Source of the DNA: Dechloromonas sp. ZY10
GTDB lineage: Bacteria > Pseudomonadota > Gammaproteobacteria > Burkholderiales > Rhodocyclaceae
NCBI RefSeq assembly: GCF_041378895.1
Contig: NZ_CP144212.1
Location: 2,651,501 to 2,715,500, forward strand
DNA: 64,000 nucleotides
Reading direction: 5' to 3'
Shown: piece after piece, positions 2,487 to 62,008 of the stretch
Position numbering within the stretch: position 1 is the stretch's first letter
Layout of the letters: every line of letters starts with the position of its first letter
Position numbers and translations under genes: made by a program
Notes under the pieces: generated by a model
Seen by the model: only the letters and a program-made list of their open reading frames with translations
Told to the model about the DNA's origin: nothing
Database searches by the model: none

Positions 2487-2528
2487 TTTTCTGTATTTAC
2501 CACGGTCGACCGTGGCAAAGCGCCATTT
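2487..2528. repeat. Palindromic repeat, exact core copy (site B)
   Basis: The core ACGGTCGACCGT is at 2502-2513. The inverted symmetry extends to TTTACCACGGTC / GACCGTGGCAAA with a single mismatch. It lies between the convergent tyrS and histidine kinase genes and ends directly at the kinase stop codon. Confidence 0.9.
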
Positions 2529-5207
2529 TCAGCCGACCGCACTCATCTCAGCAGCCTTGCTGCGACTCAGCCAGCGATGAATGGTGGCGTAAACCAGTTC
2601 CAGATCGACCGGCTTGCTGATGTGGTCGTTCATCCCGGCGTCGAGACAGGCCAGGCGATCCTGTTCAAAGGCATTGGCAGTCAGGGCGACAATCGGCGTC
2701 TGCCGGTTCAACGAGTCGGCACGGATTGCGCGCGCTGCCTCAATCCCGTTGAGATGCGGCATTTGCATATCCATCAGCACCAGCGCGTATTTCTGCTGGT
2801 TCGCCAGCACCACCGCCGCAGCGCCGTCCTCTGCCAGATCCGCAATCAACCCAACCTCTTCCAAAGCGCCCTGCATCACCGCCTGGCTGATCGGCTCGTC
2901 TTCCGCCAGCAGCACGCATGCGCCAGCAAAATCACGGCGCAGCCGGCTCTCCGCCGACTCATCGCTGCCGTGCGGCAGGAGTTGGCCGTTGGCAGCCTCA
3001 TCGGCCAACGGCAGGCGCACGGTGAACCAGAAACAACTCCCCTGCCCCAACTGGCTGCTGACACCGATTTCCCCGCCCATCAACTCGACCAGACGCCGGC
3101 TGATCGCCAGCCCCAACCCGGTACCGCCGAAGCGGCGGGTCATCGACTCGTCGGCCTGGACAAAGGGACAGAACAGACGCGCCTGTTCATCCTCGCCAAT
3201 CCCGATCCCCTGGTCGCTGACCGAAAAGCGCAACAGTACTTCCTGCCCGACCTCAGCCGCCAGTTCGACCGTGATCCTGATCTCGCCATGCTGGCTGAAT
3301 TTGATCGCATTGGACGCCAGATTATTGAGGATCTGGCCAAGCCGCAGGGGGTCGCCGAGCAAGGGTTTGCGCCCCAATTCCCAAGGCAGGTCAACCGCCA
3401 GCGTCAGCCCCTTTTCTTCGGCCCGGGCGCCTAGCATCGAGTAAACATTGCCGAGTACGGTCGAGAGATGCAGGGGAATCCGCTCCAGGGTCATCCGTTC
3501 GGCTTCGATCTTGGACAAATCGAGAATGTCATTGAGGATGCCCAGCAAATGCTCGGCTGACGTCCGGGCCCGCTCCAACTGCTCCTCGCCGCGCGGATCG
3601 CTCATCCGCTTGCGGGCCAGCGCGATCATCCCCAGCACCCCGTTCATCGGCGTCCGCAGTTCGTGGCTCATATTGGCCAGGAAGGTACTCTTGGCCCGAC
3701 TGGCCCGCTCGGCGTCCTCCTTGGCCTGCGCCAGATCGCGGGTACGAGTCTCGACCATTTCCAGCAACTGGGTCTGGTATTCGAGCAATTTGGCTTCGGC
3801 CGCCTTGCGCTCGGAAATATCCTCAACCATCGCCACGCAGTAATCGACCTGACCATCGGCCTTGCGGACCACGCTGACCGCCAGCCGGGTATGCACCGGG
3901 TGTCCGTCGCGATGAACGAAACGCTTGTCCATTGCATAGCCATTGATTTCGCCGGCCAGCAGGCGCCGGAACTGTGCTGCGTCAGCCTCCAGATCATCAG
4001 GATGCGTCAGTTCGACCCAGGTCATCCGCTGCAATTCCTCGCGTGCATAACCAAAGGACTGGCACAGCGCATCATTGACCTCGACCCACCCCTTCTCCGG
4101 GCTGGTGATTGCCATCCCGATCATTGCGTAATCGAAATAGGCATGGAAGCGGGCTTCGCGTTCGCGGATTCCCTCCAGCATCAAGACCCGTTCGGTGACG
4201 TTGTGACCGATTCCGAGCACCCCCAGCAAATCGCCGCTACCCGAGTAAATCGGCGTCTTGGTAGTTTCCAGCAACACCCGCGGACCACCGTGGGCATAGG
4301 TCACCCATTCTTCATTGACCGTCGGCCCCCCGCGCTCGACAGCCCGCTGATCGTTGCGGCGGAAAAAGTCGGCCAGTGCCTGATCGACAAAATCGTAGTC
4401 GGTCCGTCCGATGATCGCCGCCTCGGCCGCCCCGAAAAAGCGTTCGAATTCGGCATTGCAGGCCAGATAAATCCCAGCCGGGTCCTTCAGCCAGATCATC
4501 GCCGGCGCCGACTGGATCACCGTCTTGAGCAGGCGCCGTTCACGCTCCAGTTCCTCGGTACGCTCGATCACCCGCTGCTCCAGCCCGCTCTGGGCCTGAT
4601 TCACTTGCTCGGCCATATGGTTAAAGGCCAGCCCCAGCGCCAAGAATTCACTACAGGACTCGCCATCCGTGGCCACCCGCCGCTGCCGCTCTCCGCCGCC
4701 AAAGGCTCGCGCGGTTTCGGCCAGGCGGGCCAGCGGCTGGGTCAAGCGGCGTACCGCGCCCCAAACCAGCCCCAGGCCGACCAGCAAGAAGAGCGTCCCG
4801 ACCAGCAACAAGCCGGTACGAATCCGGCCAGCCCCCTCCAGCATTTCGGCCTTGCGCTGAAAATGCACCAGGCGCAAGCCCTCGCTGCCGCTGATCGCAA
4901 CGTGCCGATAACTGGCCACCAGTTCGCCCAAAGGCTCAACCACCTGGGCCACACTGCCTTCGAAACCGGCAGTGATTGCCAGCAGGCGCAGTACTTCGCG
5001 CTCTCCCGGCTGCCCCGACAAGGTGTTTAGCAGCACCTCTCCGGAAGTATCGGCAAGCAACATGTGCCGCTGCAAGTTGGGCATCGCCGCACTGCCGAGT
5101 TCGGCCATCGGCAACAACTGCTCGTGGTTGAGCACCGCCAGCAGCACCCCCAGCGGTCGCCCGACCGGCCGACCTTCACTGTCTAGCGCATGCACCTGGC
5201 GTAGCAC
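2529..5207 (-). CDS. Hybrid sensor histidine kinase, C-terminal part of a frameshifted gene
   Basis: This open frame of up to 892 codons carries most of a membrane-bound hybrid histidine kinase. In order it shows the end of a periplasmic sensor domain, a transmembrane helix (about 132-152), HAMP, two PAS domains (about 235-345 and 350-470), a HisKA dimerisation domain with the phospho-accepting His in [11 protein letters not shown], a HATPase domain (N box SNAIKF, G box [10 protein letters not shown]) and a receiver domain with the phospho-acceptor Asp in [13 protein letters not shown]. The first methionine has no ribosome-binding site. The true N-terminus is encoded in another frame at 5183-5722, and the two join across a run of eight G. 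No output domain follows the receiver, so phosphotransfer to another protein is expected. Confidence 0.85.
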
Positions 5208-6819: not shown

Positions 6820-6915
6820 GCAGGCACTCCTCCCCGCGTCGATAGACCTTCCCCTGACTCAATATAGCGGCTTTTCCGCCGCAGCACCGTATGACCTATG
6901 GTGCAAATCATGGCG

Positions 6916-6957
6916 AATTGGCCGCTGTTTAGGGTCGACCGTAAAAATCGCAAAAAA
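6916..6957. repeat. Palindromic repeat, near-exact copy (site C)
   Basis: AGGGTCGACCGT at 6931-6942 differs from the core at one base. The right arm has the two A tracts (AAAAATCGCAAAAAA), and the left arm is degenerate. It lies in the divergent region between the binding-protein gene and hda. Confidence 0.7.
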
Positions 6958-8481: not shown

Positions 8482-9828
8482 GTGATCCGCAAACTCATTT
8501 CCCGTGTTTTCGGCGGCAAAAAAGCCGCCCCCAGCAAGAACGAACCGGCCGTCATCCCGGTTTCCAGTCACGGCATCACCCGCGACCGCCTCAGTTCAGG
8601 CAGCCGCCGCACCTGCGAAACCCTGCAGCAGCACGGCTACAAGGCCTTCGTCGTCGGTGGCGCGGTACGCGACCTGCTGATCGGCGCCGACCCCAAGGAT
8701 TTCGACGTCGCGACCAACGCCACGCCGGAGCAGGTCCGTGCCTGCTTCCGCCGCTCGCGGATCATCGGCCGCCGCTTCCAGATCGTGCATGTGATGATGG
8801 GGCAGGAGACGATCGAGGTCACCACCTTCCGCGGTGAACTCGACGCCAACACCAAGAAAGACGAGCACGGTCGCGTCCTGCACGACAATGTTTTCGGCAC
8901 CCAGGCCGAAGATGCGGCGCGCCGAGACTTCACCGCCAACGCCCTGTATTACGACCCAGCCACGGAAGCGATCATCGACTACCACCACGGCGTCGGCGAC
9001 CTCAAGGCAAAAACCCTGCGCATGATCGGCGAGCCGAAGACCCGCTACCGCGAGGACCCGGTGCGCATGCTCCGCGCCGTTCGCCTGGCGGCCAAGCTCG
9101 GGCTGCAGATCGATCCAGACGCCAAGCGCCCGATCCGCGAAATGACCAGCCTGCTGGAAAACGTCCCGCCAGCCCGGCTGTTCGACGAAATGCTCAAGCT
9201 GCTGACCTCGGGCCATGCAGTGAAATGCCTGCGCCAATTGCGCGACGAAGGCCTGCACCACGGCCTGCTACCGCTGCTCGACGTCATCCTCGAACAGCCG
9301 CTCGGAGAAAAGTTCGTTATGCTGGCGCTGGCCAATACCGACGAACGAATCCGCAAAGGCAAGGGAAGTTCGCCCGGCTTCCTGTTCGCCACCCTGCTCT
9401 GGCACGAAGTGTTGATGCACTGGGACAAACTGAAGGCCAAAGGCGAGTTGAAGATTCCGGCGCTGTATCAGGCAATGGACCACGTGCTCGACGTCCAGGC
9501 GGAAAAGCTGGCGATCACCCGCCGCATCGTCGGCGACATCAAGGAAATCTGGTCGCTGCAGCCGCGCTTCGAGCAGCGCGCCGGCAAGCGCCCCTACGCA
9601 CTGCTCGAACAGCCGCGTTTCCGTGCTGCCTACGATTTTCTGGTGCTGCGTGCCCAGGCCGGCGAGATCGAGATGGAGATTGCCGACTGGTGGACCCGCT
9701 TCCAGCGTGCCGACTTCGACCAGCGTGGCGAAATGCTGCTGCCGGAAGCCGCTGGCGACAAGAAAAAACGTCGCCGGCGCAAGAAAAAACCGGCTCCCGG
9801 CGACGTTGACCGTAGCAGCGGCGAATAA
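8482..9828 (+). CDS. pcnB: Poly(A) polymerase I
   Basis: Adds 3' poly(A) tails to RNA, which promotes RNA decay. The 448-residue protein starts with GTG. The nucleotidyltransferase signature GGAVRDLLIG with the catalytic DFDVATNA acidic pair lies at about residues 58-78. The head-domain segments RDFTANALYY and the RNA-binding motif RYREDPVRMLRAVRLAAKLG follow. The C-terminal tail is strongly basic (KKKRRRRKKK), as in other PcnB proteins. These features separate it from the CCA-adding enzyme. The gene ends 15 bases before folK, an arrangement common in proteobacteria. Confidence 0.93.
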   Translation: MIRKLISRVFGGKKAAPSKNEPAVIPVSSHGITRDRLSSGSRRTCETLQQHGYKAFVVGGAVRDLLIGADPKDFDVATNATPEQVRACFRRSRIIGRRFQIVHVMMGQETIEVTTFRGELDANTKKDEHGRVLHDNVFGTQAEDAARRDFTANALYYDPATEAIIDYHHGVGDLKAKTLRMIGEPKTRYREDPVRMLRAVRLAAKLGLQIDPDAKRPIREMTSLLENVPPARLFDEMLKLLTSGHAVKCLRQLRDEGLHHGLLPLLDVILEQPLGEKFVMLALANTDERIRKGKGSSPGFLFATLLWHEVLMHWDKLKAKGELKIPALYQAMDHVLDVQAEKLAITRRIVGDIKEIWSLQPRFEQRAGKRPYALLEQPRFRAAYDFLVLRAQAGEIEMEIADWWTRFQRADFDQRGEMLLPEAAGDKKKRRRRKKKPAPGDVDRSSGE

Positions 9829-9843: not shown

Positions 9844-10326
9844 ATGGCGATTGCCTATCTTGCGCTGGGCGCCAACCTCGGCGACCCGGTTGCCACGGTC
9901 AACGCCGCTTTTGCGGCCATTTCCCGGCTGCCGGACAGCGAACTGCAAGCCCGCTCGGCGCTCTACCGCACCGCGCCGGTCGGAATTGCCGAGCAACCCG
10001 AATTCATCAACGCCGCTGCCCGCATCAAAACCGCGCTGGCACCGGAAGCGCTGCTCGACGCGCTGTTGGCCATCGAACAGGATTTCGGACGCATCCGCAG
10101 CCTGCGCAACGGCCCGCGTACTTTGGATCTCGACGTCCTGCTTTACGGCGACCTGACGCTGGATACGCCGCGCCTGCAGTTGCCGCACCCGCGCCTGCAC
10201 CTGCGGGCCTTCGTCCTGCAACCGCTGGCTGATGTCGTACCCGCTGCCGACTTTCCGCTGCCCGGCCGGGGCACCCTCGCCGCCTGGCTGCCAGCCGTCG
10301 CCAATCAGGGCATCGTCCGTCTCTGA
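9844..10326 (+). CDS. folK: 2-amino-4-hydroxy-6-hydroxymethyldihydropteridine pyrophosphokinase
   Basis: Transfers pyrophosphate from ATP to 6-hydroxymethyl-dihydropterin in folate synthesis. At 160 residues it has the family length. The N-terminus AYLALGANLGDP is the HPPK beta-strand/loop signature. The catalytic loop region ALYRTAPVG, the motif GPRTLDLDVLLYGD (with the Mg-binding DLD) and the closing PHPRLHLRAFVLQPL are all present. It follows pcnB closely. Confidence 0.95.
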   Translation: MAIAYLALGANLGDPVATVNAAFAAISRLPDSELQARSALYRTAPVGIAEQPEFINAAARIKTALAPEALLDALLAIEQDFGRIRSLRNGPRTLDLDVLLYGDLTLDTPRLQLPHPRLHLRAFVLQPLADVVPAADFPLPGRGTLAAWLPAVANQGIVRL

Positions 10327-13004: not shown

Positions 13005-13016
13005 ACGGTCGACCCG
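13005..13016. repeat. Degenerate palindromic repeat (site D)
   Basis: ACGGTCGACCCG differs from the core at the last positions of the right arm. It lies directly before the shared terminator between the convergent panD and NYN genes. Confidence 0.5.
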
Positions 13017-13021
13017 CCAGC

Positions 13022-13055
13022 CGATAAAAAACCGCCCGAGGGCGGTTTTTTATCG
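13022..13055. terminator. Bidirectional terminator between panD and the NYN gene
   Basis: A perfect inverted repeat CGATAAAAAACCGCCC / GGGCGGTTTTTTATCG with a two-base centre gives a GC stem followed by a U run on either strand. It suits the two convergent genes. Confidence 0.9.
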
Positions 13056-18962: not shown

Positions 18963-21352
18963 AGCCGCCTTCCCCGCTCTGGCAACGCAGCCTGCTGTTT
19001 CGCACGGTCGCCAGCATCATCGCCATGACCTTGCTGGTCGGAGGCCTGCTGGTCGCCGGGCTCTCGGTGCTGGTCAAGCAAAAGGCCGAGGCCGACGCCT
19101 ATCGCCAACTCGGGGAACTGATCGACACCGTTGAAAGTACTGTCCGCATCGCCTGCTTCGTCAAGGACGAGCAACTGGCGGCGGAAGTCGCCCGCGGCCT
19201 GATGCGGACGCGGGAAATCAGCGCAGTCCGCATCTCCGACGAATTACAGCCGCTCACCTACCAGGAGCGCAGCCCCGAACCCGGACGCAAGATGCCACTG
19301 ACGGTGGCGCCGCTGGAACGGGAAGTGCATTCCCCCTTCGACGAACGGGAACGGGTCGGCAGCATCACCCTGTATCCGAACAAGGCCTTGATCGAGGAAC
19401 GGATCGTTACCTCGACCCTGTATATCGCCTCGCAGTTCGGCCTGCTGATCGCCGCAGTAGCCGCAGCGCTGACCCTGACCGTCTATCGCCTGGTAATGCG
19501 CCCGATTGCCCGGCTGTCACACGGCTTGCACGCCCTGGATGCCGAGTCGGGAGCCCACCTGCAGCCACCGCGCAGTCATGAGCACAACCTGCTGGGCACC
19601 CTGACGGCCGACATCAATGCTCTGACTGCGCGACTGGTGGCCTCTCTGCATGACGAACAGAGTCTGCGCCGGCAGCGGGAAATCGACGAGCGCAAATACC
19701 GCGGGATTTTCGAAAACGCCGAATCGGGCATTTTTGTCGCCGACGGACGTTGCCGAATGAGTTCTTACAACCGTTCTCTCGCCCGCTTGGCCGGCCTGCC
19801 GCCGGCCGCCGAACAGGCTGCGGCGCTGGCCCTGACCGACCTTCCCTGGGCCGCACCGGAACATCTGCCAGCACTGATTGGCCGCTGCCTGCAAGACAAC
19901 CTCACCGTTGGCGACGACTTCGAACTGATGCATCCGGAAACCGGCTGGTGCTGGCTGAACATCACCCTGACACCGGTCGGCCCCGACCTGGTCCAGGGCA
20001 TTGTCAGCGATGTAACCGAGCGCCGCGAGGCCGAAATCCGCGCCCGTCGCCTCGCCATCACCGATCCACTGACCGGCCTGCCGAATCGTAGCGGCTTCGA
20101 ACAAGCCTTGCTGCAACAACTGAAAAACCAGCCGGAGCAGGAATTCACCCTGCTCCTGCTCGACCTCGACGGTTTCCGCCAGATCAACGATGCACTCGGC
20201 TTTGCCGTCGGCGACCAGGTCCTGGTCGGAATGGCCGCCCGCTGCCTGGCCGCGCTCAAGCCCGGCGACCAGGTAGCACGTCTTGGTGGCGACGATTTTG
20301 CCATCTGTTTGCCCGGTGTCTCCAGCAGCATTTCCGCCGGCAAACTGGCGCAGCGACTGAAAGGCCAGATTGCCGAACCGATCCGCGTTGCCGACCGCGA
20401 ACACGGCTTGCACGCAAGCATCGGCATCGCCCGTTACCCGGCCGACGGCAACACGTTGCCGGATCTGCTGCGACACGCCGAACTGGCGCTGGCCAGCGCC
20501 CAGAGTAGCGGAGGTAACGCCTGGCGGCTGTTCGAGCCGTCAATGGCCAAGGCAGTCGAGCAACGCCAGCAGTTGGCCAGTGACCTGCGGGAAGCCGCCA
20601 GCCGGGGCGAACTGCGCCTGCACTATCAACCCATCGTCGACCTCGCCAGTCATCGTGTCAGCAGCGCCGAATGCCTGCTGCGCTGGCAGCACCCGACCCT
20701 TGGCATGATCCCGCCCGACCGCTTCATCCCGCTCGCCGAAGAGACCGGGCTGATCGACGAAATCGGCCTGTGGTGCCTGCAAACCGCTTGCCAGCAGTTA
20801 TCCAAATGGGATGCAGGCGGCCTGGGCCTGAATCTCACGGTCAACGTTTCGGCACGGCAAATTCCCACCGGCCTTGCCCCCGAAGCGGTGCTCGCGCTGC
20901 TCGCCAGACATCAGCTGGCCCCACACCGGATCGGTCTGGAAATCACCGAAAGCACGCTGATCGGCGACCGCAGTGCCGTCGAAACCTGGATCGACACCCT
21001 GCGTGCCGCCGGCTGCCGGATTTATCTCGATGATTTCGGCACCGGCTACTCGTCGCTGTCCTATCTGAAATCCCTGCAACTCGATACGCTCAAGATCGAC
21101 AAGGCCTTTGTCCGCGACCTCGACGAGGCCTCCCATGACCGGGTGATGGTCGAGGCGGTGACAATGATGGCCGACAGCCTGCAGTTGTCAGTCGTCGCCG
21201 AAGGGATCGAAACCCCCGAGCAACTCGCGGTGCTGCGCCAGATGGGCTGCCGCTACGGGCAAGGCTATCTGTTCTCGCGCCCGGTCCCGGCCGAACAGTT
21301 ACCAGAGGCCCTGGTGCGGATCAATACCCACGCACTGGCAGCGACGATTTAG
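18959..21352 (+). CDS. Membrane sensor with PAS, GGDEF and EAL domains
   Basis: A 797-residue inner-membrane protein for c-di-GMP turnover. Two membrane helices (about 15-38 and 150-175) bracket a periplasmic sensor region; then come HAMP, a PAS domain (about 240-355), GGDEF (about 360-525) and EAL (about 540-790). The cyclase signature reads GGDDF instead of GGDEF or GGEEF. The phosphodiesterase signature reads ECLLRW with the metal-binding Glu kept, and [14 protein letters not shown] and the closing VAEGIET are intact. The phosphodiesterase is probably active; cyclase activity is less certain. The PstS-like and porin partners suggest a ligand-controlled c-di-GMP switch. Confidence 0.88.
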
Positions 21353-22269: not shown

Positions 22270-22306
22270 CGTTTTTTTGCCCCTTTTTTCCGCGTTGACC
22301 GTAAAA
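22270..22306. repeat. Degenerate palindromic repeat arm (site E)
   Basis: Two T tracts separated by GCCCC are followed by GTTGACCGTAAAAC. This gives the spacing of the repeat family with only the right half core intact. It fills most of the norF-norQ gap, and norQ has no recognisable Shine-Dalgarno sequence. Confidence 0.45.
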
Positions 22307-42693: not shown

Positions 42694-43569
42694 GGGGAGC
42701 ACCCCGGACAAGCCGTAGCAGGCCAGGTCGCTCTCGGCGGCCTGCGGCCACTGCAGCAGCAGCGGCTGCGCGGCGGCGTCGAGCCAGCCGGCCAGTTCGC
42801 GCATCGCCGGCAGCGCCAGCGCGGTGCAGCCGGCGGTCGGCACGCCCGGCGCCTCCCACACGTGCAAAAAAATGCACGAACCGCGCCCGGGCTGCGGCGG
42901 CTGGTTGTAGGCGACGACCGCGCCGAGCTCGTAACGCCCATCGGCCCGCCGCATTTCTTCGGCCGAACCCCAGTCGACCGTGACAGCGGCACGATCCACC
43001 ACCTGGTTGTAATGCGCCGACATGGCATCATCGACGCACTGCAAACCCGGATGCGCCGCCAGATACGGCAGCCGCGCCGCCCGCGCCAGCTCGCTGTCGG
43101 CAGCGGCATAACCAAACAAGGCCGTCACCGGAAACAGCCCGACCGGCGCCCGACCGTCGCCTTCGATTTTGTGTGGAGCGGCTTGCGGTGCGGTTGCGGT
43201 TGCGGTTGCGGACAGGGCTAAGTCTGGTGCGCCTGCGAGTGCACTTCCCGGGACATTCTCCGGCGCGGTGTTGAGCGCACCGGCCGGCATGCCGACCATC
43301 CCCCAGGCCAAGCCGTTGCGCCCCAGCATCACCGGCCACGCCTCGCCCACCGGTTGCCAGCCGGCCGCATCGCGTTCAAACCGCTGCAAATGCCCGCTCG
43401 TCGCCTGCCAATCGGCAGCGAGACAGAGCAGCAACTGGCGGCAGGAGGCCAGCGCCGTCGCCAGCGTATCGGCAACAGCGCTGGCCGCTTCGGGCACGGC
43501 ACCCACAGGAGACAGCACCGGCCAAGCAGCAGGCGCGGCAGAACAAGTTGAGGATTCGGACACGATCAA
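42667..43569 (-). CDS. YkuD-type L,D-transpeptidase-like protein
   Basis: A frame of up to 300 codons beginning at TTG 43569 (GTG 43563 is an alternative; neither has a good ribosome-binding site). The core has QATSGHLQRFERDAAGWQPVG, HKIEGDGRAPVGLFPV and the active-site region CIFLHVWEAPGVPTAGCTAL. The Cys and upstream His fit the YkuD catalytic pair, but Ala replaces the usual Arg after the Cys. A run of GGTTGC hexanucleotides (43189-43213) encodes ATATATAP in the linker. L,D-transpeptidases crosslink peptidoglycan in the periplasm, but no clear signal peptide is seen here. Confidence 0.7.
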   Translation of the reverse strand: MIVSESSTCSAAPAAWPVLSPVGAVPEAASAVADTLATALASCRQLLLCLAADWQATSGHLQRFERDAAGWQPVGEAWPVMLGRNGLAWGMVGMPAGALNTAPENVPGSALAGAPDLALSATATATAPQAAPHKIEGDGRAPVGLFPVTALFGYAAADSELARAARLPYLAAHPGLQCVDDAMSAHYNQVVDRAAVTVDWGSAEEMRRADGRYELGAVVAYNQPPQPGRGSCIFLHVWEAPGVPTAGCTALALPAMRELAGWLDAAAQPLLLQWPQAAESDLACYGLSGVLPLMDLLRIR

Positions 43570-43615
43570 GGCGAAAAAGGATCAAAAAACACCGGGAACA
43601 CCGGCAGAGCAAGCA

Positions 43616-43657
43616 TTTTCGCCGATTTTCACGGTCGACCGTGGAAATGGCGAAAAA
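43616..43657. repeat. Palindromic repeat, exact core (site K)
   Basis: The core is at 43631-43642. Both arms carry A/T tracts: TTTTCGCCGATTTTCACGGTC on the left, mirrored on the right by GACCGTGGAAATGGCGAAAAA-type sequence. It lies between divergent genes. Confidence 0.92.
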
Positions 43658-43857
43658 CGGCGCAATGGACTGAGGCCAGCGTAAAACGTCCGCCAAAGAC
43701 TGGGAGAACAATTGGCAAATCAACGCCGCCAAAGCCACCGCCCCAACCCGGCAATCAACGGCCAAAGATCAGCAAAAACCGGGTAAGCGGGTTGCGCCCG
43801 CAGAGCGCACAAAAGACCCGCCCCCGCCGCTGTCGTAAAAATGCCGCAAGCGGCCGA

Positions 43858-43899
43858 TTTTTGCCGGCGGATACGGTCGACCGTGAAAAAGATCAAAAA
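43858..43899. repeat. Palindromic repeat, exact core (site L)
   Basis: The core is at 43873-43884. The outer T5 tract on the left and both A5 tracts on the right are at the standard distance; the left inner tract is GC-rich. It lies 34 bases upstream of the TAGAAT box of the HIT gene. Confidence 0.9.
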
Positions 43900-43981
43900 C
43901 CACGCCATGCCGTCCGGCTAGAATAAGACCTTTGTCCTAGCCCGCATTCGCGCCCTCGCCGCGCCCCAAGGAGCCCGCCGC

Positions 43982-46888: not shown

Positions 46889-47001
46889 CGCATACCATTC
46901 CGCACAACCCCATATGCATACCCCCGCGTGTAAGCCACGTCGGCAATAACCCTTCGTTACAGTCTGGTATGCCCTGCAAGAACAAAAGGGACCAGGGTCA
47001 G

Positions 47002-47043
47002 TTTTTTCCCAAAACCACGGTCGACCGTAATTTCGAGCAAAAA
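47002..47043. repeat. Palindromic repeat, exact core (site M)
   Basis: The core is at 47017-47028, with T6 on the left and A6 on the right at the usual 16-21 base distance from the centre. It lies between convergent genes. Confidence 0.9.
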
Positions 47044-47064
47044 ATCCATCTGATCACCGCCCCC

Positions 47065-50553: not shown

Positions 50554-50598
50554 CACGGTCGACGGGAAAAAAGGCGATTTTTCCGGGTCGACCGTGGC
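50554..50598. repeat. Composite palindromic repeat forming a long hairpin (sites N and O)
   Basis: Two near-cores, ACGGTCGACGGG (50555-50566) and CGGGTCGACCGT (50584-50595), face each other across A6-GGCGA-T5. The arms pair over about 20 bases with two mismatches and a five-base loop. It lies between the divergent nirJ and ABC transporter genes. Confidence 0.85.
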
Positions 50599-53009: not shown

Positions 53010-53480
53010 ATGTCCACAGCTTCCTTCCAACTTGAACGCGACGCCTACGGTCGACTGGTCCTGACCGGCGAAAACGGCGAGCGCCACGAAGGCGTCACCC
53101 CGGTGCGCGCCTTTCCGATTGCCGCGCCGGACGAAGGCATTTCGCTGATCAGCGCTGAAGGCCACGAAGTGGCCTGGGCCGACCGCGTGGCCGACCTGCC
53201 GCCGGCGGCCCGCGCCCTGGTCGAGGACGAACTAGCCAGCCGCGAATTCGTCCCCGAGATCGACAAGATCATCGCCGTTTCCAGCTTTGCCTGCCCCAGC
53301 ACCTGGCAGGTGAGTACCAGCCGGGGCGCCTGTGAACTGCTGCTCAAGGGCGAGGAAGACATCCGCCGGCTGTCGCGCACGCAATTGCTGATCGCCGACA
53401 GCCACGGCATCCAGTTCCTGGTGCGCGACCTGACCCAGCTCGACCGGCACAGCCGCAAGCTGCTCGACCGCTTCCTGTAA
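53010..53480 (+). CDS. DUF1854 protein of the cyanophycin locus
   Basis: A 156-residue cytoplasmic protein without signal or membrane helices. The segments RDAYGRLVLTGENGERHEGVTPVRAFPI, SEGHE-like SAEGHEVAWADRV, TWQVSTSRGACELLLKGEEDIRRL and the final FLVRDLTQLDRHSRKLLDRFL are the DUF1854 hallmarks. The family occurs with the cyanophycin ABC transporter, often directly after it as here (21-base gap). Its biochemical role is unknown. Confidence 0.85.
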   Translation: MSTASFQLERDAYGRLVLTGENGERHEGVTPVRAFPIAAPDEGISLISAEGHEVAWADRVADLPPAARALVEDELASREFVPEIDKIIAVSSFACPSTWQVSTSRGACELLLKGEEDIRRLSRTQLLIADSHGIQFLVRDLTQLDRHSRKLLDRFL

Positions 53481-53608: not shown

Positions 53609-55831
53609 ATGAAGAACGCAAACATCATCATCAGGGAAACCTTTTCGCTGCCCGGCCCGAACATCTGGACCATCTACCCGGTTCTGGAAGCCTGGATCGA
53701 CATCGGCGAGCTGGAAGACTACCCGTCCGACAAGATTCCCGGTCTCTACGAGCGACTGACCGCGTGGATTCCCAGCCTGATCGAACACCGCTGCAACATC
53801 GGCGAACGCGGCGGCTTCCTGCAGCGCTTGCGCAACGGCACCTGGAGCGGCCACATCCTCGAACACGTCGTGCTGGAATTGATGAACCTGGCCGGCCTGA
53901 CCGGGACCCGCGACGGCTTCGGGCGGACCCGCGAAATGACCGAGCGCGGCGTGTACAAGCTGATCATCAGCAATTTGCACGAGGAATGCACCCGCTACGC
54001 GCTGGACCTCGCCCGCGACCTGCTGCTGGCCGCGATCCGCGACGAGCCACACGATGTCGAGGCGACCATCGCCAAGCTGCGCCGCCAAGTCGACCGCAAG
54101 CACCTTGGTCCGTCCACCGCCGCCATCGTTCAGGCCGCCGAAAAGCGCGATATTCCGCACATCCGCCTGCTGCCCAACGGCAACCTGGTGCAACTCGGCT
54201 ACGGCGCCGCGATGCGCCGCATCTGGACCGCCGAAACCGACCAGACCAGCGCCATCGCCGAGACCATCTCGCGCGACAAGGATTTGACCAAGGAGTTGAT
54301 TTCCTCGGTCGGCGTACCGGTGCCGGAAGGCCGCGAGGTCGATAGCGCCGAAGATGCAGTCGAAGCCGCCGAAGATATCGGCTACCCGGTGGTGGTCAAG
54401 CCGACCGACGGCAACCACGGGCGTGGCGTGTTCATCGACCTGGTGACGCCGGAAGCGGTGCGCAAGGCCTACCCGATTGCCGCCGAGGAAGGTTCCGGCG
54501 TGCTCGTCGAACGCGCCATTCAGGGCATCGAACACCGCCTGCTGGTGGTCGGCGGCAAGCTGGTCGCGGCCAACCGCAGCGATTTCATCACGGTTACCGG
54601 CGACGGCCAGCAGACCGTTCAGCAACTGATCGATAGCCAGATCAACGTCGATCCGCGCCGTGGCAACACCGAACTGCATCCGCTGTCGATCATCAAGATC
54701 GACACCGCTGCCAAGATCGAACTCGAACGCCAGGGGCTGGGCGAAGACAGCGTGCCGGCTGCCGGCCGCGAAGTGCTGATCCAGCGCAACGCCAACCACG
54801 CCTTTGACTGCACCGACGAGGTTCACCCCGAAACCGCCGCCGTCGCCGCGCTGGCGGCCCGCGTGGTCGGCCTCGACATTGCCGGCATCGACCTGGTCTG
54901 CGCCGATATTTCGCAGCCGCTGGCCGCCCAGGGCGGTGCCATCGTCGAAGTCAATGCCGGCCCCAGCCTGCTGATGCACATCAAGCCCGGCGTCGGCAAA
55001 CCGCGTCCGGTTGGACAGGCGATTGTGGACAACCTGTTCGCCGCGCACGAAAGCGGCCGCGTGCCGCTGGTCGGTGTCAGCGGTACGCACGGCAAGACGG
55101 CGGTCGCCAAAATCATCGCCCACCTGCTCTACCTCTCCGGCAAGCACACCGGTCTGGCCTGCAGCGACGGCCTCTACCTCGGCCGCCGCCAGGTCCAGAA
55201 AACCGATGCCGGCAATTTCGCCGGCGCCCGCCGCCTGTTGATGAACCGCGCGGTCGAGGCCGCAGTGGTCGAAGCCGGGGCCGAAGTGATCCTCGGCGAA
55301 GGCATTCCCTACGACTTCTGCTCAGTCGGTGTGGTCACCAACGTTGCTCCGGCCGACGAGGATTTGTCGCGCTGGGACGTGCAGCCGGTAGACAGCGACT
55401 ATTACACGACGCCGCGTGCGATTTACCGCTCGCAGGTCGATGTGGTGCAGCCGAACACCGGGATCGCCGTGCTCAATGCCGACGATGCACTGGTCGCCGA
55501 CTTCGCCGAGTTGTGCGAAGGGAAAACCCTCTTTTTCACGGTCGACCGTAAAAATCCGCGCATTTTCTCTCACCTCGCCGCCGGTGAACGCGTCGTCACC
55601 ATTGACGACGGGCGCATCGTGCTGCTTACCGGCAGCGACGAAGTCCGCCTCTGCCGCCTGGGCGACGTGCCGCTGATCGGCAAGGAGAAAAAGCCGGCCG
55701 ACATCGCCAACGTGCTCGCGGCCACGGCCACCGGCTGGGCGCTGGGGCTGTCCAAGGACGTGCTGAAGACCGGCCTGAAGACTTACGGAATCGAGCTGGC
55801 CGACCTGGCCACGCTGCTGTCGCAGAAATAA
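53609..55831 (+). CDS. cphA': CphA' (short cyanophycin synthetase-like protein)
   Basis: A 740-residue relative of cyanophycin synthetase. It has the N-terminal CphA domain, an ATP-grasp domain (about 220-480: VVVKPTDGNHGRGVFIDL, AIVEVNAGPSL) and a Mur ligase-like domain with P-loop GVSGTHGKTAVAK at about 492-504. The final Mur C-terminal domain is missing compared with the 862-residue neighbour. An exact palindromic repeat core (55538-55549) is read in frame as FFTVDRKNPRIF, which aligns without a gap to FFARDKKNPVLA of the neighbour. Whether it makes polymer by itself or helps CphA is unknown. The pair of genes is typical of Betaproteobacteria. Confidence 0.9.
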   Translation: MKNANIIIRETFSLPGPNIWTIYPVLEAWIDIGELEDYPSDKIPGLYERLTAWIPSLIEHRCNIGERGGFLQRLRNGTWSGHILEHVVLELMNLAGLTGTRDGFGRTREMTERGVYKLIISNLHEECTRYALDLARDLLLAAIRDEPHDVEATIAKLRRQVDRKHLGPSTAAIVQAAEKRDIPHIRLLPNGNLVQLGYGAAMRRIWTAETDQTSAIAETISRDKDLTKELISSVGVPVPEGREVDSAEDAVEAAEDIGYPVVVKPTDGNHGRGVFIDLVTPEAVRKAYPIAAEEGSGVLVERAIQGIEHRLLVVGGKLVAANRSDFITVTGDGQQTVQQLIDSQINVDPRRGNTELHPLSIIKIDTAAKIELERQGLGEDSVPAAGREVLIQRNANHAFDCTDEVHPETAAVAALAARVVGLDIAGIDLVCADISQPLAAQGGAIVEVNAGPSLLMHIKPGVGKPRPVGQAIVDNLFAAHESGRVPLVGVSGTHGKTAVAKIIAHLLYLSGKHTGLACSDGLYLGRRQVQKTDAGNFAGARRLLMNRAVEAAVVEAGAEVILGEGIPYDFCSVGVVTNVAPADEDLSRWDVQPVDSDYYTTPRAIYRSQVDVVQPNTGIAVLNADDALVADFAELCEGKTLFFTVDRKNPRIFSHLAAGERVVTIDDGRIVLLTGSDEVRLCRLGDVPLIGKEKKPADIANVLAATATGWALGLSKDVLKTGLKTYGIELADLATLLSQK
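55523..55564. repeat. Palindromic repeat inside cphA', exact core (site P)
   Basis: The core is at 55538-55549. T5 on the left and A5 on the right are directly flanking (TTTTTCACGGTC / GACCGTAAAAAT). It is translated as FTVDRKN. Confidence 0.9.
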
Positions 55832-55847: not shown

Positions 55848-58436
55848 ATGGACGTTTCCCGCATTCGTGCCCTGCGCGGTCCCAACCTGTGGAGCCGCCA
55901 CACCGCCATTCAGGCCATCGTTACCTGCGAAGGCAACGAGACCGCCATTGCCCAACTGCCCGGCTTTGAAGCCCGCCTGCGCGAGCGTTTCCCCGAGCTG
56001 GGCGACCTGATCCCGTCCGACCACCTCGACACCGTGTCGATGGCCCACGCGCTGGAGTTCTGCGCCCTCGGGCTGCAGGCCCAGGCTGGTTGCCCGGTGA
56101 CCTTCAGCCGTACCGCCCAGACCGTCGAAGCCGGGGTCTATCAGGTGGTGGTCGAATACACCGAAGAGGATGTCGGCCGCCTCGCCTTCGAACGTGCCGA
56201 ACAGCTGTGCCTGGCGGCGCTCAACGACACCCCGTTCGACCTTGAAGGCACGCTCAAGGAACTGCGCGATCTCGACGAAGATATCCGCCTCGGCCCCTCC
56301 ACCGGTGCCATCGTCGCCGCAGCCGTCGCTCGCGGCATTCCCTACCGCCGGCTGACCCAGGGCAGCCTGGTGCAACTCGGCTGGGGCTCGAAACAGAAGC
56401 GCATCCAGGCTGCTGAAACCAGCTTCACCAGCGCGATTGGCGAAGCGATTGCACAGGACAAGGAACTGACCAAGCAATTGCTGCACGCCGCCGGCGTGGC
56501 CGTCCCCTTCGGTCGTCCGGTCGATGATGAGGACGATGCCTGGGCGGCGGCGCAGGAAATCGGCCTGCCGGTGGTGGTCAAGCCGCAGGACGGCAACCAG
56601 GGCAAAGGGATTTCGGTCAATCTCACCAGCGAAGAGCAGGTCCGCCATGCCTACCGCGTTGCAATCGAGTTCCGCGACGACATCATGGTCGAGAAATACC
56701 TGCCCGGCCACGACTGGCGCCTGCTGGTGATCGGCAACAAGCTGATCGCCGCCGCCCGCCGTGATCCGCCGCTGGTAGTCGGCGACGGCACCCATACCGT
56801 GCGCGAACTGGTCGACATCGTGAATAGCGATCCGCGCCGCTCCGACGGCCACGCGACCTCGTTGACCAAGATCCGCTTCGACGAAATCGCCATCGCCCGT
56901 CTCGCCGAGCAAGGCTACCAGCCGGACTCGATCCCGGCGCGCGGCGCCCGCGTGGTCTTGCGCAACAACGCCAACCTGTCTACCGGCGGCACCGCTACCG
57001 ATGTCACCGACGACGTGCATCCGGAGCTGGCCGCTGCCGCCGTTGCCGCTGCGCAGACCGTCGGTCTCGACATCGCCGGCATCGACGTGGTCTGCGACAC
57101 CATCCTCAAGCCGCTCGAAGAACAAGGCGGCGGCATCGTCGAGGTCAACGCCGCGCCCGGCCTGCGGATGCACCTCGATCCGTCTTACGGCAAGGGCCGC
57201 GCAGTCGGCGAGGCGATCATCGAGATGATGTTCAAGCCCGGCCCCGACGGCAAGCCCGATAACGCCCGCATCCCGGTCGTTGCGATCACCGGCACCAACG
57301 GCAAGACCACCACCAGCCGCCTGATCGGCCGGATTTTCGAGGCCGACAACAAGCGCGTCGGGATGACCAGCACCGACGGCATTTATGTCGAGAACCGCCG
57401 CATCGACAGCGGCGACTGCTCCGGCCCGCGCTCAGCCCGCAATGTGCTGATGCACCCGGACGTTGACGCTGCGGTGTTCGAAACCGCGCGCGGTGGCGTG
57501 CTGCGCGAAGGCCTCGGCTTCGATGTCTGCGACGTCGCCGTGGTCACCAATATCGGCGTCGGCGATCACCTCGGTCTGAACTACATCACCACGGTCGACG
57601 AGCTCAGCGTGGTCAAACGGGTGATCATCGAAAACGTCAAGCGCGACGGCCACGCCGTGCTCAACGCCGGCGACCCGATCGTCGCCCGGATGGCGCCGCA
57701 CTGCTCGGGTGAGGTGATCTTCTTCGCCCGCGACAAGAAAAACCCGGTACTGGCCACGCACAAGGCGCAAGGCAAGCGGGTGGTCTATGCCGAGCGCGAT
57801 GCGATGATTTTCCAGCACGGCAACAAGAAGCACCGTGTTCCTTTCGTCAATATTCCGCTGACCCGCAACGGCAGCATCGGCTTTCAGGTCGAGAACGCAA
57901 TGGCCGCTGCCGCCGCCGGCTGGGCGCTGGGCATCGACTGGCCGCTGATCGAACAGGCGATGGCCGGCTTCACCAGCGACGCCAGTACCGCCCCCGGCCG
58001 CTTCAACGTCTTCGACTACAAGGGCGCAACGCTGATTGCCGACTACGGCCACAACCCGGACGCGATTCAGGCACTGACCCAGGCAATCGAAGGCATGCCC
58101 GCCGTGCGCCGCTCGGTGGTGATCAGCGCCGCCGGCGACCGCCGCGACGAGGACATCCGCCAGCAGACCGAAATCCTCGGCGGTGCCTTCGACGATGTGA
58201 TCCTCTACCAGGATGCCTGCCAGCGCGGCCGCGAGGACGGCGAAGTGATTGCCCTGCTCCGCCAGGGCCTGAGCAATGCCAGCCGTACCCGCCGCATCGA
58301 CGAGATTACCGGTGAATTCGTCGCCATCGACCTGGCGCTCGAACGCCTGCATCCCGGCGACCTCTGCCTGATCCTGATCGACCAGGTCGACGAGGCCTTG
58401 GCACACATCGGGCAGCGGATCGCAGAAAGCAAGTAA
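55848..58436 (+). CDS. cphA: Cyanophycin synthetase
   Basis: Makes cyanophycin, the aspartate backbone polymer with arginine side chains, using ATP; acts in the cytoplasm on storage granules. The 862-residue protein has the full architecture: N-terminal domain (1-160), ATP-grasp (about 215-475: PVVVKPQDGNQGKGISVNL, GGGIVEVNAAPGLRMHLDP), Mur ligase-like domain with P-loop ITGTNGKTTTSRL at about 482-494, and the Mur C-terminal domain with YGHNPDAIQAL. It starts 16 bases after cphA' and is followed by a strong terminator. Confidence 0.96.
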   Translation: MDVSRIRALRGPNLWSRHTAIQAIVTCEGNETAIAQLPGFEARLRERFPELGDLIPSDHLDTVSMAHALEFCALGLQAQAGCPVTFSRTAQTVEAGVYQVVVEYTEEDVGRLAFERAEQLCLAALNDTPFDLEGTLKELRDLDEDIRLGPSTGAIVAAAVARGIPYRRLTQGSLVQLGWGSKQKRIQAAETSFTSAIGEAIAQDKELTKQLLHAAGVAVPFGRPVDDEDDAWAAAQEIGLPVVVKPQDGNQGKGISVNLTSEEQVRHAYRVAIEFRDDIMVEKYLPGHDWRLLVIGNKLIAAARRDPPLVVGDGTHTVRELVDIVNSDPRRSDGHATSLTKIRFDEIAIARLAEQGYQPDSIPARGARVVLRNNANLSTGGTATDVTDDVHPELAAAAVAAAQTVGLDIAGIDVVCDTILKPLEEQGGGIVEVNAAPGLRMHLDPSYGKGRAVGEAIIEMMFKPGPDGKPDNARIPVVAITGTNGKTTTSRLIGRIFEADNKRVGMTSTDGIYVENRRIDSGDCSGPRSARNVLMHPDVDAAVFETARGGVLREGLGFDVCDVAVVTNIGVGDHLGLNYITTVDELSVVKRVIIENVKRDGHAVLNAGDPIVARMAPHCSGEVIFFARDKKNPVLATHKAQGKRVVYAERDAMIFQHGNKKHRVPFVNIPLTRNGSIGFQVENAMAAAAAGWALGIDWPLIEQAMAGFTSDASTAPGRFNVFDYKGATLIADYGHNPDAIQALTQAIEGMPAVRRSVVISAAGDRRDEDIRQQTEILGGAFDDVILYQDACQRGREDGEVIALLRQGLSNASRTRRIDEITGEFVAIDLALERLHPGDLCLILIDQVDEALAHIGQRIAESK

Positions 58437-59034: not shown

Positions 59035-59519
59035 ACCCTGGCCTCCAGTTTCATTTCGACGAAGTACTCGCGCTCCTTGGGAAAGGCATGCACCTTGAGC
59101 CCGGTCGCCGCTTCAATTTCGGCAATCGCCGCCGGGATTCCTTCCGGCGTTTCGGTGGCCAGCACGAACCACATGTTGAGCAGGTGCTCGCGGCGATAAT
59201 TGTGGGCGACCTGCGGCAGCGCATTGACCTGTGCCGCAACCTCGTCGTAGCGCACCTCTGGCACCGCCAGCGCGGCCAGCACGAAGGCGCCGCCGATGCG
59301 CTCGATCTGCACCATTGGCCCGAAGCGGGTCAATACCCGGGCGTCAAGCAGGCGCTGCAGACGCTGCAGCAACTCGGCCTCGCAGATCCCGAGATGCTCG
59401 GCGGCAGCCTGATAGGGACGGGAGCAAAGCGGGAAATCGCCCTGCATTTTGGCCAGAATTTCACGGTCGACCGTGTCCAGGGCGATTTTTTCGGCTGGCG
59501 GCGTCTGTCGCTCACGCAT
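59031..59519 (-). CDS. nirG: NirG, siroheme decarboxylase component
   Basis: A 162-residue AsnC-like protein of the siroheme decarboxylase group, with HTH-like GDFPLCSRPYQAAAEHLG, the GPMVQIERIGGAFVLAALAVP strand and the NYRREHLLNMWFVLATET motif. It overlaps nirDL upstream by eight bases and nirH downstream by four, so all are translationally coupled. An exact palindromic repeat core (59463-59474) is read in frame near the N-terminus as DTVDREILAK. That N-terminal peptide is conserved in type with the paralogues (AVDRALI in nirH), so the repeat overlaps coding need. Confidence 0.88.
   Translation of the reverse strand: MRERQTPPAEKIALDTVDREILAKMQGDFPLCSRPYQAAAEHLGICEAELLQRLQRLLDARVLTRFGPMVQIERIGGAFVLAALAVPEVRYDEVAAQVNALPQVAHNYRREHLLNMWFVLATETPEGIPAAIAEIEAATGLKVHAFPKEREYFVEMKLEARV
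59448..59489. repeat. Palindromic repeat inside nirG, exact core (site Q)
   Basis: The core is at 59463-59474 with AATTTC on the left; the right arm has GGCGATTTTTT. It lies near the 5' end of nirG. Confidence 0.85.
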
Positions 59520-60498: not shown

Positions 60499-61670
60499 AA
60501 ACCGATACGCGCGGCGCGCGTGGTGAAGAAAATCCCGGAAGGGTTGTCGGCAGCGATTTCGCCGACCCGGGCAAAGCTACCCGTATCGTAAATCACCACC
60601 TTGTTGTCGTCGCGGGCCGAGAGCCAGACATTTTCGCCGCGCGGCGTGAATTCCATGTGCAGGATGCCCTTGCCCGGTTCCAGCTGCTTGACCACCTTGC
60701 CCGCCAGGGTATCGACCACATCGACCATGCCGTAGTCGGGGAAGGCGAAATTGACCCAGATCTGCCGCCCGTCGGGCCGCGCCATCACGAACACCGGTTG
60801 ACCGCGCACCGGAATCCGGCCGACTTCCTTCCAGGTCGCGACATCGACCACCAGAATTTCGTGGCGCCCGATCGCCGGCAGGTAGGCCTTCCCTTGCGCC
60901 ACCGACCAGCCGCGCAGGTGCGGCATCTTGAACACCGGTAGCTTCTGCTCACCGCGACCGTAGTTTTCGAGAATCTTGCGCGCGCCCTTTTCCGGCTGCC
61001 ACAGGTCGAGCATCGCGACCCCGTCCTCGCCGAACAGGCCAGCCAGGAAATGCCGGCCATCGGGCGTCACCAATCCGTCGTAGGGCTGGCTGCCGGCCGG
61101 GTAGCGCTCGGTTTTTGGGGCTTTGGGATCGCTGAAATCGGTCACCCGGATCTCGCCGCCATCGAACAATGCGTAGGCGAACTTGTTGCCCGGCGAGTCG
61201 GCCAGGCCGACGACCTTGGAGAACTTGCCCGGCGCGTACTCGGCGGGCACCTCCGAAAGCAACTCCAAGGTGTCGGCATCGAAGGCCTTGATCCCGCCCG
61301 GGGTGTAGTTCTGCGCAACCACGATGCGGCCATCCTGCGAAATCGAACCGCCAATCGCGTTGCCGGACTGGATCACGCGCTTGACGATCTTGGCTTCCAG
61401 CAAGTCGACCTTGGTCAGCCCGCCGTCGCGGCCGAAGATGTAGGCATAGCGCCCATCCCGCGAATACACGGCGGAGGCGTGCGAAAGATCGCCAAGCCCG
61501 CTGATTCGGGCATAGGGCTGGCGCGTGCTGGTATTGACCAGGGTCAAGTGGCCGCTGGCCCGCTCGATGATCAGGCCGAGATCGCCAGTGCCGCGCAGGG
61601 GCTGGCCGGCGCAGGCCGCCAGCAGCAAGCTTGCGGCAGCGGCACACAACAGGGAACGCAGGCGCTTCAT
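60495..61670 (-). CDS. nirF: NirF, periplasmic lipoprotein of heme d1 synthesis
   Basis: A 391-residue protein with a lipoprotein signal (LLCAAAASLLLAAC) and an eight-bladed propeller related to the d1 domain of NirS but lacking the cytochrome c domain. It acts on the d1 precursor before NirN. Visible blades include YSRDGRYAYIFGRDGGLTKVD, SPGNKFAYALFDGGEIRVTDF and MEFTPRGENVWLSARDDNKVVIYD. ATG 61670 was chosen because it starts the signal peptide and overlaps the nirC stop codon; an upstream in-frame start would add 12 residues. Confidence 0.92.
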   Translation of the reverse strand: MKRLRSLLCAAAASLLLAACAGQPLRGTGDLGLIIERASGHLTLVNTSTRQPYARISGLGDLSHASAVYSRDGRYAYIFGRDGGLTKVDLLEAKIVKRVIQSGNAIGGSISQDGRIVVAQNYTPGGIKAFDADTLELLSEVPAEYAPGKFSKVVGLADSPGNKFAYALFDGGEIRVTDFSDPKAPKTERYPAGSQPYDGLVTPDGRHFLAGLFGEDGVAMLDLWQPEKGARKILENYGRGEQKLPVFKMPHLRGWSVAQGKAYLPAIGRHEILVVDVATWKEVGRIPVRGQPVFVMARPDGRQIWVNFAFPDYGMVDVVDTLAGKVVKQLEPGKGILHMEFTPRGENVWLSARDDNKVVIYDTGSFARVGEIAADNPSGIFFTTRAARIGF

Positions 61671-62008
61671 TGGGGAAACTCCGTCATCAGCCGCTCGGCG
61701 ATCCATTGCGCCTCGGCTTCATTGAGAAAACGTTGCCAGGGCGGCATCGCGGTGCCCGGCCGCCCGTAGTAGATGGTGGCGGCCAAGCCTTCGACCGGCT
61801 TGTCCTTGAGTTCGGCCGGCAGCAACGCCGGCCCGAGGCCGCCCTGCAGGGTCATGCCGTGGCAGGAGCCGCAATCCTGGCGGACCATGCGCACCAACTC
61901 GCGCTGCCGGGAGGTCAGCGGCTCAGCCGCATCGCTGGATACGGTCGACAGGGAAAAAAGGCAAAAAAGCAGCACGGAAATACCGGCGCGAGAAGCTACT
62001 GGATTCAT
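61667..62008 (-). CDS. nirC: NirC, small periplasmic cytochrome c
   Basis: A 113-residue monoheme cytochrome c with signal peptide (ISVLLFCLFSLSTVSSDAA), heme site CGSCH near residue 47 and methionine ligand region GTAMPPWQRFL. NirC can donate electrons to NirS or take part in d1 maturation. The near-repeat ACGGTCGACAGG (61941-61952, with two A6 tracts) is read within the signal peptide. The gene overlaps nirF. Confidence 0.92.
   Translation of the reverse strand: MNPVASRAGISVLLFCLFSLSTVSSDAAEPLTSRQRELVRMVRQDCGSCHGMTLQGGLGPALLPAELKDKPVEGLAATIYYGRPGTAMPPWQRFLNEAEAQWIAERLMTEFPQ
61926..61967. repeat. Near-exact palindromic repeat inside nirC (site R)
   Basis: ACGGTCGACAGG at 61941-61952 followed by GGGAAAAAAGGCAAAAAA, showing both A tracts clearly. 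The left arm is degenerate. Confidence 0.6.

What the first reader, a model, noticed from the sequence alone, without database searches (positions are those of the whole stretch)
2487..61967. Interspersed palindromic repeat with core ACGGTCGACCGT
The exact 12-base palindrome occurs nine times in this window, starting at 2502, 27259, 28886, 40156, 43631, 43873, 47017, 55538 and 59463. Near copies start at 6931, 13005, 23504, 38499, 50555, 50584 and 61941, with weaker arms near 762 and 22291. By my rough estimate for a GC-rich genome, chance would give about 0.01 exact copies in 64 kb. Symmetry often extends beyond 20 bases (best: TTTTCACGGTC / GACCGTGAAAA at 40151-40172). Most copies are intergenic, between either convergent or divergent genes. 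I do not recognise this as a described REP, RPE or parS family.
Basis: partly seen in the sequence, partly recalled or inferred. Interest (0 to 1): 0.88.

Follow-up and report, generated by a model that had tools for sequence, protein, structure and literature searches.

The report
Probable DNA-uptake tags in Azonexus bacteria
The repeated palindrome is two overlapping copies of a short one-way DNA tag, present about a thousand times in this bacterium, that looks like the self-recognition tags which some bacteria use to take up DNA of their own kind, a habit so far reported from only two other bacterial families.

Summary
The nine palindromes are real and genome-wide: 247 exact copies against 1 for the reversed control. 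The palindrome is not the unit. The unit is one-sided: core ACGGTCNAC, then two A/T tracts centred about 7.5 and 17.3 bp past the core, roughly one helical turn apart. In a 24% sample, 398 of 422 cores carry the far tract. The genome (GTDB genus Azonexus, including Dechloromonas) has 1,298 matches to the common pattern against 60 in the control.

Only core position 7 is free. No replication-strand bias. Units occur in genes and between them, form tight inverted pairs, appear to arise by substitution, and vary in dialect. Counts across the genus are bimodal: 40 of 76 genomes have 429 or more, 36 have 210 or fewer. Outside it, 297 sampled genomes of the order have at most 71.

Best explanation: a DNA uptake signal sequence like that of Haemophilus, probably independently evolved. 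ComEC, ComEA, DprA and a minor-pilin operon with a ComP_DUS-family pilin are present. Uptake is inferred, not shown; the receptor is unidentified.

The parts
2486..2529 (.). palindromic pair (two units overlapping at GTCGAC), core 2502-2513, convergent intergenic
27243..27286 (.). palindromic pair, core 27259-27270, convergent intergenic; long stem followed by ATTTTT, terminator-like
28870..28913 (.). palindromic pair, core 28886-28897, inside H+-pyrophosphatase gene 27289-29343
40140..40183 (.). palindromic pair, core 40156-40167, intergenic, co-directional genes
43615..43658 (.). palindromic pair, core 43631-43642, divergent intergenic
43857..43900 (.). palindromic pair, core 43873-43884, divergent intergenic
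47001..47044 (.). palindromic pair, core 47017-47028, convergent intergenic
55522..55565 (.). palindromic pair, core 55538-55549, in cyanophycin-synthetase-like gene 53609-55831; kept in 1 of 35 alignable relatives
59447..59490 (.). palindromic pair, core 59463-59474, in predicted gene 59031-59519; kept in 11 of 21 alignable relatives
50555..50595 (.). head-to-head pair (offset 32) sharing both A/T tracts, divergent intergenic
762..789 (+). single unit ACGGTCAAC + A/T tracts
6915..6942 (-). single unit
9786..9813 (-). single unit, in gene
9895..9922 (+). single unit, in gene
13005..13032 (+). single unit, convergent intergenic
20837..20864 (+). single unit, in gene
22275..22302 (-). single unit, intergenic
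23504..23531 (+). single unit, in gene
24382..24390 (+). core ACGGTCAAC without far A/T tract (the only one of 36 in the window; probably chance)
33001..33028 (-). single unit, in gene
36239..36266 (+). single unit, in gene
38499..38526 (+). single unit, in gene (opposite strand)
42954..42981 (-). single unit, in gene
53047..53074 (+). single unit, in gene; kept in 14 of 33 alignable relatives
57591..57618 (+). single unit, in cyanophycin synthetase gene; kept in 7 of 37 alignable relatives
61941..61968 (+). single unit, intergenic

Best explanation
Each unit (core ACGGTCNAC plus two helically phased A/T tracts on its 3' side) is a DNA uptake signal sequence. Shown here: the unit's anatomy, abundance, dialects, distribution among relatives and evolutionary behaviour, and the presence of competence genes. 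Inferred: a minor pilin of a type IV pilus (candidates: the FimT-like GspH-family pilin or the ComP_DUS-family pilin in the operon beside glmU) reads the core. The A/T tracts, on one face of the helix, help docking or kinking at the secretin. ComEA then pulls the DNA in, ComEC passes one strand, and recombination spreads better-matching alleles, so units build up by drive. Palindromes are two units sharing GTCGAC; they are tolerated best between genes, where many probably also serve as terminators.
For: Unit and specificity: 65 palindromes and 166 non-palindromic ACGGTCGAC cores in the sample; after the latter, bases +17 and +18 are 98% and 95% A/T in a genome with 38% A/T. 398 of 422 ACGGTCNAC cores carry the far tract. 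All three position-7 variants keep it (0.86-0.94); the other variants with at least 4 copies show 0.14-0.62. Abundance: 980 vs 3 (ACGGTCGAC-N15-WWW); 1,298 vs 60 (CGGTCRAC-N16-WWW). USS hallmarks taken from passages of PMC1626085: strict consensus; non-coding DNA preferred, yet many in genes (112 of 166 non-palindromic cores); close inverted pairs (65 overlapping, 12 facing at offset 31-33, every other spacing under 120 bp at most once); origin by substitution (gap-free alignment at 30 of 30 lost cases for 57591 and 13 of 19 for 53047). Dialects in the 5 motif-rich genomes sampled. Retention in relatives 42 of 63 (motif-rich) vs 20 of 61 (motif-poor), against 28-29% for random positions, at equal overall identity. 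Four low-GC 10-kb bins hold 1 unit against about 17.7 expected. No replication-strand bias, 171 vs 177. ComEC, ComEA (59), DprA (70), ComP_DUS and GspH pilins (25, 38) in this genome.
Against: No uptake or binding experiment exists here, and no report of natural transformation in the genus turned up (listings only). ComEC and ComP_DUS genes occur in motif-poor genomes too, so they do not track the motif and the receptor is unidentified. 24 of 422 cores lack the far tract. The retention test rests on 6 alignable sites in one 16-kb block; site 55539 is kept in none of 33 relatives, and 52705 is kept in 8 of 14 motif-poor ones. Lost cases at 55538 are gapped in 20 of 34 and at 59463 in 10 of 10. 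The low-GC depletion rests on 4 bins picked after seeing the data, three of which hold flagellar or ordinary chromosomal genes; one further empty bin, L046, has normal GC. Single mismatches (456 including position 7) outnumber the perfect G-form core (296), unlike H. influenzae. On the recA tree the motif-rich label is not clustered beyond chance: 146 of 500 shuffles are as low.
Confidence: 0.85

Rival explanations
1. Binding site of a nucleoid-organising or chromosome-segregation protein (parS, matS, Noc or SlmA type, or KOPS/Chi type).
For: Dyad symmetry and phased A/T tracts would suit a DNA-bending dimer.
Against: Density does not differ between the two ends of the GC-skew halves: 78 units in the 10 sampled stretches nearest the contig ends (presumed origin) and 83 in the 10 nearest the skew switch at about 1.75 Mb (presumed terminus), summed from the table; origin and terminus were inferred from GC skew only. 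No strand bias (171 vs 177). 166 of 296 cores are one-sided. Over a thousand matches, many in genes, with dialects that differ between species.
Confidence: 0.08
2. Mobile palindromic repeat (REP, MITE or RAYT-spread element).
For: High copy number; 50 of 65 palindromes are not inside a predicted gene.
Against: No conservation beyond about 22 bases from the dyad. The A/T tracts are conserved as A-or-T, not as a sequence. Lost cases of units 57591 (30 of 30) and 53047 (13 of 19) align without gaps, as expected from substitution; 55538 (14 of 34) and 59463 (0 of 10) do not settle it. Of units read on the gene's strand, 94 of 119 are in one codon frame. A RAYT gene was not searched for.
Confidence: 0.02
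3. Family of transcription terminators.
For: Palindromes are enriched between convergent genes (22 of 65 vs 2.2% of positions); 35 of 50 palindromes outside genes have a T-run on one side vs 19% of random intergenic positions.
Against: Does not explain single units in genes, on either strand, with the same tract (211 units). 9 of 15 palindromes inside genes also have a T-run, so part of the T-run signal is the tract itself. Likely a secondary use, as reported for DUS and USS pairs.
Confidence: 0.05

Closest known systems
Uptake signal sequence (USS) of Pasteurellaceae, Hin type AAGTGCGGT and Apl type ACAAGCGGT
   Same: 9-bp core with two A/T-rich segments on its 3' side; hundreds to about 1,500 copies per genome; in and between genes; close oppositely oriented pairs; types that differ between subclades; origin by mutation (passages)
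   Different: Core here is ACGGTCNAC (shares CGGT; the G-dialects share GCGGTC with the Apl ten-mer ACAAGCGGTC); tracts centred 7.5 and 17.3 bp past the core, 9.8 apart, versus one just past the core and one 12 further; overlapping palindromes are the commonest paired form; a different genus of another class by older taxonomy; function untested
DNA uptake sequence (DUS) of Neisseriaceae, GCCGTCTGAA and dialects
   Same: Dialects, inverted pairs linked to terminators; overlapping dyad pairs reported for simDUS and kingDUS in S. muelleri (passage); a ComP_DUS-family pilin is present here
   Different: Unrelated core; DUS has no flanking motifs (passage)
Noc, SlmA, MatP and ParB sites (recalled)
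   Same: Palindromic, dispersed
   Different: No presumed-origin/terminus pattern, asymmetric unit, far more copies

Membership tests
Uptake sequences (USS/DUS) as a functional class | DNA carrying the sequence is taken up preferentially by competent cells | not testable with these tools
   needs an uptake or transformation assay
Uptake sequences (USS/DUS) as a functional class | Strong over-representation across the whole genome | tested here: met
   980 vs 3 and 1,298 vs 60
[quoted passage not shown]
   296 perfect; 24 variants outside position 7 total 330, position-7 variants 126. Taking ACGGTCNAC as the consensus, 422 against 330, but those 330 were counted for the G form only. Far above the 1 in 27 of chance either way
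Uptake sequences (USS/DUS) as a functional class | In coding and non-coding DNA, non-coding preferred, close inverted pairs | tested here: met
Uptake sequences (USS/DUS) as a functional class | Origin by point mutation, not insertion | tested here: met
   gap-free at 30 of 30 (57591) and 13 of 19 (53047) lost cases; 14 of 34 (55538) and 0 of 10 (59463) leave those two open
Uptake sequences (USS/DUS) as a functional class | Competence machinery in the genome | tested here: met
   ComEC, ComEA, DprA, minor pilin operon; PilQ, PilT and ComM not tested
Pasteurellaceae USS | Core AAGTGCGGT or ACAAGCGGT | tested here: not met
   core ACGGTCNAC
Pasteurellaceae USS | Two A/T-rich 3' segments | tested here: met
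   spacing 9.8 vs 12 bp
Neisserial DUS | Continuous motif with inner core CTG, no A/T tracts | tested here: not met
REP/RAYT elements | Palindrome spread by copying | tested here: not met
   single asymmetric units and gap-free lost sites at two of four units
REP/RAYT elements | A RAYT gene in the genome | not tested
   no search made
parS/matS/Noc/SlmA sites | Bias toward or away from origin or terminus | tested here: not met
   78 vs 83 units in 10 + 10 stretches, origin and terminus presumed from GC skew

The most novel reading that the evidence does not exclude
A third, independently evolved system of self-DNA recognition in transformation, found in one betaproteobacterial genus, in which uptake specificity has been lost or gained several times between related species, and whose favoured paired form is a self-overlapping dyad that could be read by two receptor subunits or in either direction.
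Probability: 0.6. Interest if true: 0.88.

Novelty: new variant of a known kind. Interest (0 to 1): 0.83.

Why it matters
[quoted passage not shown] A third case in environmental bacteria (habitat recalled), with motif-rich and motif-poor species in one genus, gives a natural experiment on how uptake specificity arises, drifts into dialects and is lost, and a way to find a receptor by comparison. The similar layout (core plus two A/T tracts downstream) in unrelated families would point to a physical requirement of DNA entry.

Tried and rejected
A first recA tree mixed strands and was thrown out; one search replaces it. De novo search for core-plus-tract motifs in four motif-poor genomes (G060; G068, G065, G035; 80-100 kb each) and in five genomes of other genera of the family (60 kb each, best z 5.4 against 9.6 for this genome) found no comparable motif. 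Pooled orthologous loci of other taxa are not informative, because conserved genes inflate the statistic. ComEC state does not separate motif-rich from motif-poor genomes. A link between FimT and the motif could not be tested: 25 of 30 genomes were hit, many weakly. Whether ComP_DUS pilins also occur outside the genus was not tested beyond the 14 control genomes. A seemingly low-GC bin in L012 is an artefact of 5,000 N and was left out of the low-GC test (4 of 5 bins used). Structure prediction was not used: it would not decide between the explanations. Literature searches without a prior report: no paper; one unrelated paper each; only the listed part of 43, 122, 21 and 22 papers seen, as titles and starts of abstracts; open-licence PMC only, no preprints.
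Full report
WHAT IS THERE. The nine exact copies of ACGGTCGACCGT are at the stated places, against 0.01 expected from shuffles. The window is part of a single 3,568,927-base contig that holds 247 copies, against 1 for the reversed pattern.

THE UNIT IS NOT THE PALINDROME. I read 40 evenly spread 20-kb stretches plus the window (864 kb, of which 5,000 bases are N). The 9-mer ACGGTCGAC occurs 296 times, 130 of them in the 65 palindromes. The other 166 are followed, on their 3' side, by an A/T-rich patch and then a stronger one: bases +16 to +19 after the core are 86, 98, 95 and 83% A/T in a genome with 38% A/T. At +17 and +18 A and T are about equally common, so composition rather than sequence is kept. 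The tracts are centred 7.5 and 17.3 bp past the core, 9.8 apart. A weaker A/T preference lies just before the core (0.55-0.61 at four positions). Testing all 27 single substitutions, only position 7 is free: GAC 296, then AAC 107, CAC 15 and TAC 4, all with the tract (0.86-0.94). The other 24 variants total 330; those with at least 4 copies show 0.14-0.62, the commonest being GCGGTCGAC (64 copies, 0.55). So the unit is ACGGTCNAC plus two tracts; 398 of 422 cores far enough from a stretch end have at least 3 of 4 A/T at +16 to +19. In the window there are 36 cores, 35 with the tract.

PAIRS. Of 425 cores, neighbours in opposite orientation occur at offset 3 (65 pairs, the palindromes) and at offset 31-33 (12 pairs, where two facing units share both A/T tracts); every other spacing up to 120 bp occurs at most once per orientation.

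WHERE THEY ARE. With a home-made gene finder (702 genes), 15 of 65 palindromes lie in genes and 22 between convergent genes, against 83% and 2.2% of positions; 112 of 166 non-palindromic cores lie in genes. Units inside genes keep the tract (96% A/T at the best position, 211 units), lie on either strand (119 with, 92 against the gene), and 94 of the 119 same-strand units are in one frame, ACG-GTC-RAC. There is no bias to the G-rich strand, 171 vs 177. Palindromes outside genes have long stems (30 of 50 with at least 8 perfect pairs per arm, against 3 of 15 inside genes) and a T-run on one side in 35 of 50, against 19% of random intergenic positions, so many may act as terminators; but 9 of 15 inside genes have a T-run too. 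Four 10-kb bins with GC below 57% hold 1 unit against about 17.7 expected. Two lie in a flagellar cluster, one holds a PilS-like kinase and other ordinary genes, and one a transposase, restriction-type genes and a reverse-transcriptase gene. A fourth empty bin, L046, has normal GC. The bins were picked after seeing the data.

RELATIVES. With the common pattern CGGTCRAC-N16-WWW, 40 of 76 genomes of the genus have 429-2,410 matches and 36 have 25-210; controls are 18-67 (the 76 include incomplete genomes). In the order, 300 genomes drawn from a larger group, the 297 outside the genus (6 of them from other genera of the same family) have at most 71 (G366, control 42). Dialects differ: CACGGTCRAC here, mostly ACGGTCRAC in G031, TGCyGCGGTCRAC in G030, TGCtGCGGTCGAC in G064 and a looser form in G062; none was found in four motif-poor genomes. 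On a recA tree of 15 motif-rich and 15 motif-poor genomes, chosen by me, the label needs 9 changes, at least 4 forced by well-supported branches, and 0 of 200 bootstrap trees need only one; the label is not clustered beyond chance, 146 of 500 shuffles being as low. recA resolves the genus poorly, so this shows repeated change but not its direction. In 34 relatives aligned to the window beyond 47.6 kb (the nearest, L095, and loci under 8 kb left out), 6 of 8 sites could be aligned. Cores are kept in 53 of 79 cases in relatives rich in units at that locus and 9 of 45 in poor ones. Classing relatives only by units not orthologous to the tested sites gives 42 of 63 against 20 of 61 (Fisher p = 0.0003, not corrected for shared ancestry), at the same overall identity, 0.81; random positions give 28-29%. 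Where a unit is missing, the alignment is gap-free in 30 of 30 cases for 57591 and 13 of 19 for 53047, with a few substitutions in place of the core, but only in 14 of 34 for 55538 and 0 of 10 for 59463.

MACHINERY. The genome has ComEC in one open frame (808 aa, 358.6 bits against a cut-off of 190), ComEA, DprA and 13 prepilin-type matches. Beside glmU lies a minor-pilin operon: a pilin of Pfam ComP_DUS, the family of the Neisseria uptake-sequence receptor (40 bits, cut-off 27.3), a GspH-family pilin that I call FimT-like, a PilV-like gene (below the NCBIfam cut-off), a PilW, and genes that I take for PilX and PilY1 by position and recall. ComP_DUS is found in 70 of 76 genomes of the genus and 0 of 14 controls, motif-poor ones included, so it is a candidate, not proof.

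WHAT IT MOST LIKELY IS. This is the anatomy and behaviour of an uptake signal sequence. Passages of PMC1626085 give the hallmarks: a core with two A/T-rich segments on the 3' side, a very strict consensus, preference for non-coding DNA with many coding copies, close inverted pairs, subclade-specific types, and origin by mutation. Passages of PMC7811141 describe the A/T tracts as rigid and slightly bent, which is suggested to aid uptake. A passage of PMC3630211 reports overlapping dyad pairs of two DUS dialects and suggests a dimer-based recognition. The sequence hallmarks are met here, except that perfect copies of the G form do not outnumber all single mismatches, and that origin by mutation is clear at only two of four units tested. 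The core is unlike AAGTGCGGT and the tract spacing differs, so it is not a Pasteurellaceae USS; and a passage of PMC12616744 says that only Neisseriaceae and Pasteurellaceae are known to discriminate at this step. I therefore file it as a new variant of a known kind, probably independent. That it works in DNA uptake is inferred; no experiment was available.

Noticed in passing
window:44872-46098: Mutator-family transposase gene in a unit-free stretch between the palindromes at 43873 and 47017.
   Followed up: no
G088:C1:2218607-2251879 and G002:C33:109525-144033: comEC appears split by about 32-34 kb in two species (hits to profile positions 1-29 and 26-267 far apart on one strand; the small piece of G002 is below the cut-off), as if a large element had inserted into the competence gene.
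   Followed up: no
comEC of G008 and G035: comEC gives two partial hits: in G008 on two contigs, one with an in-frame TAG; in G035 side by side. G008 is still motif-rich; G035 is motif-poor although its neighbours G069 and G084 on the recA tree are motif-rich.
   Followed up: partly
L048:1-9897: Unit-free stretch with an IS3-type integrase, a large reverse-transcriptase protein, GmrSD and a restriction-type helicase subunit: looks like a defence island.
   Followed up: partly
G321:C1 (L249-L251): A repeated near-palindrome around CATGTCCGGCATG, 12-17 copies of its parts in 60 kb, in another genus of the family.
   Followed up: no
Azonexus hydrophilus ZS02 (L124) and Azonexus hydrophilus Isolate_3 (L130): Two records under one species name have 13 and 0 units at the same locus: a misnamed record or a recent change.
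   Followed up: no
window:53609-58436: Two adjacent cyanophycin synthetase-type genes; the region aligns in order in the 6 relatives compared.
   Followed up: no
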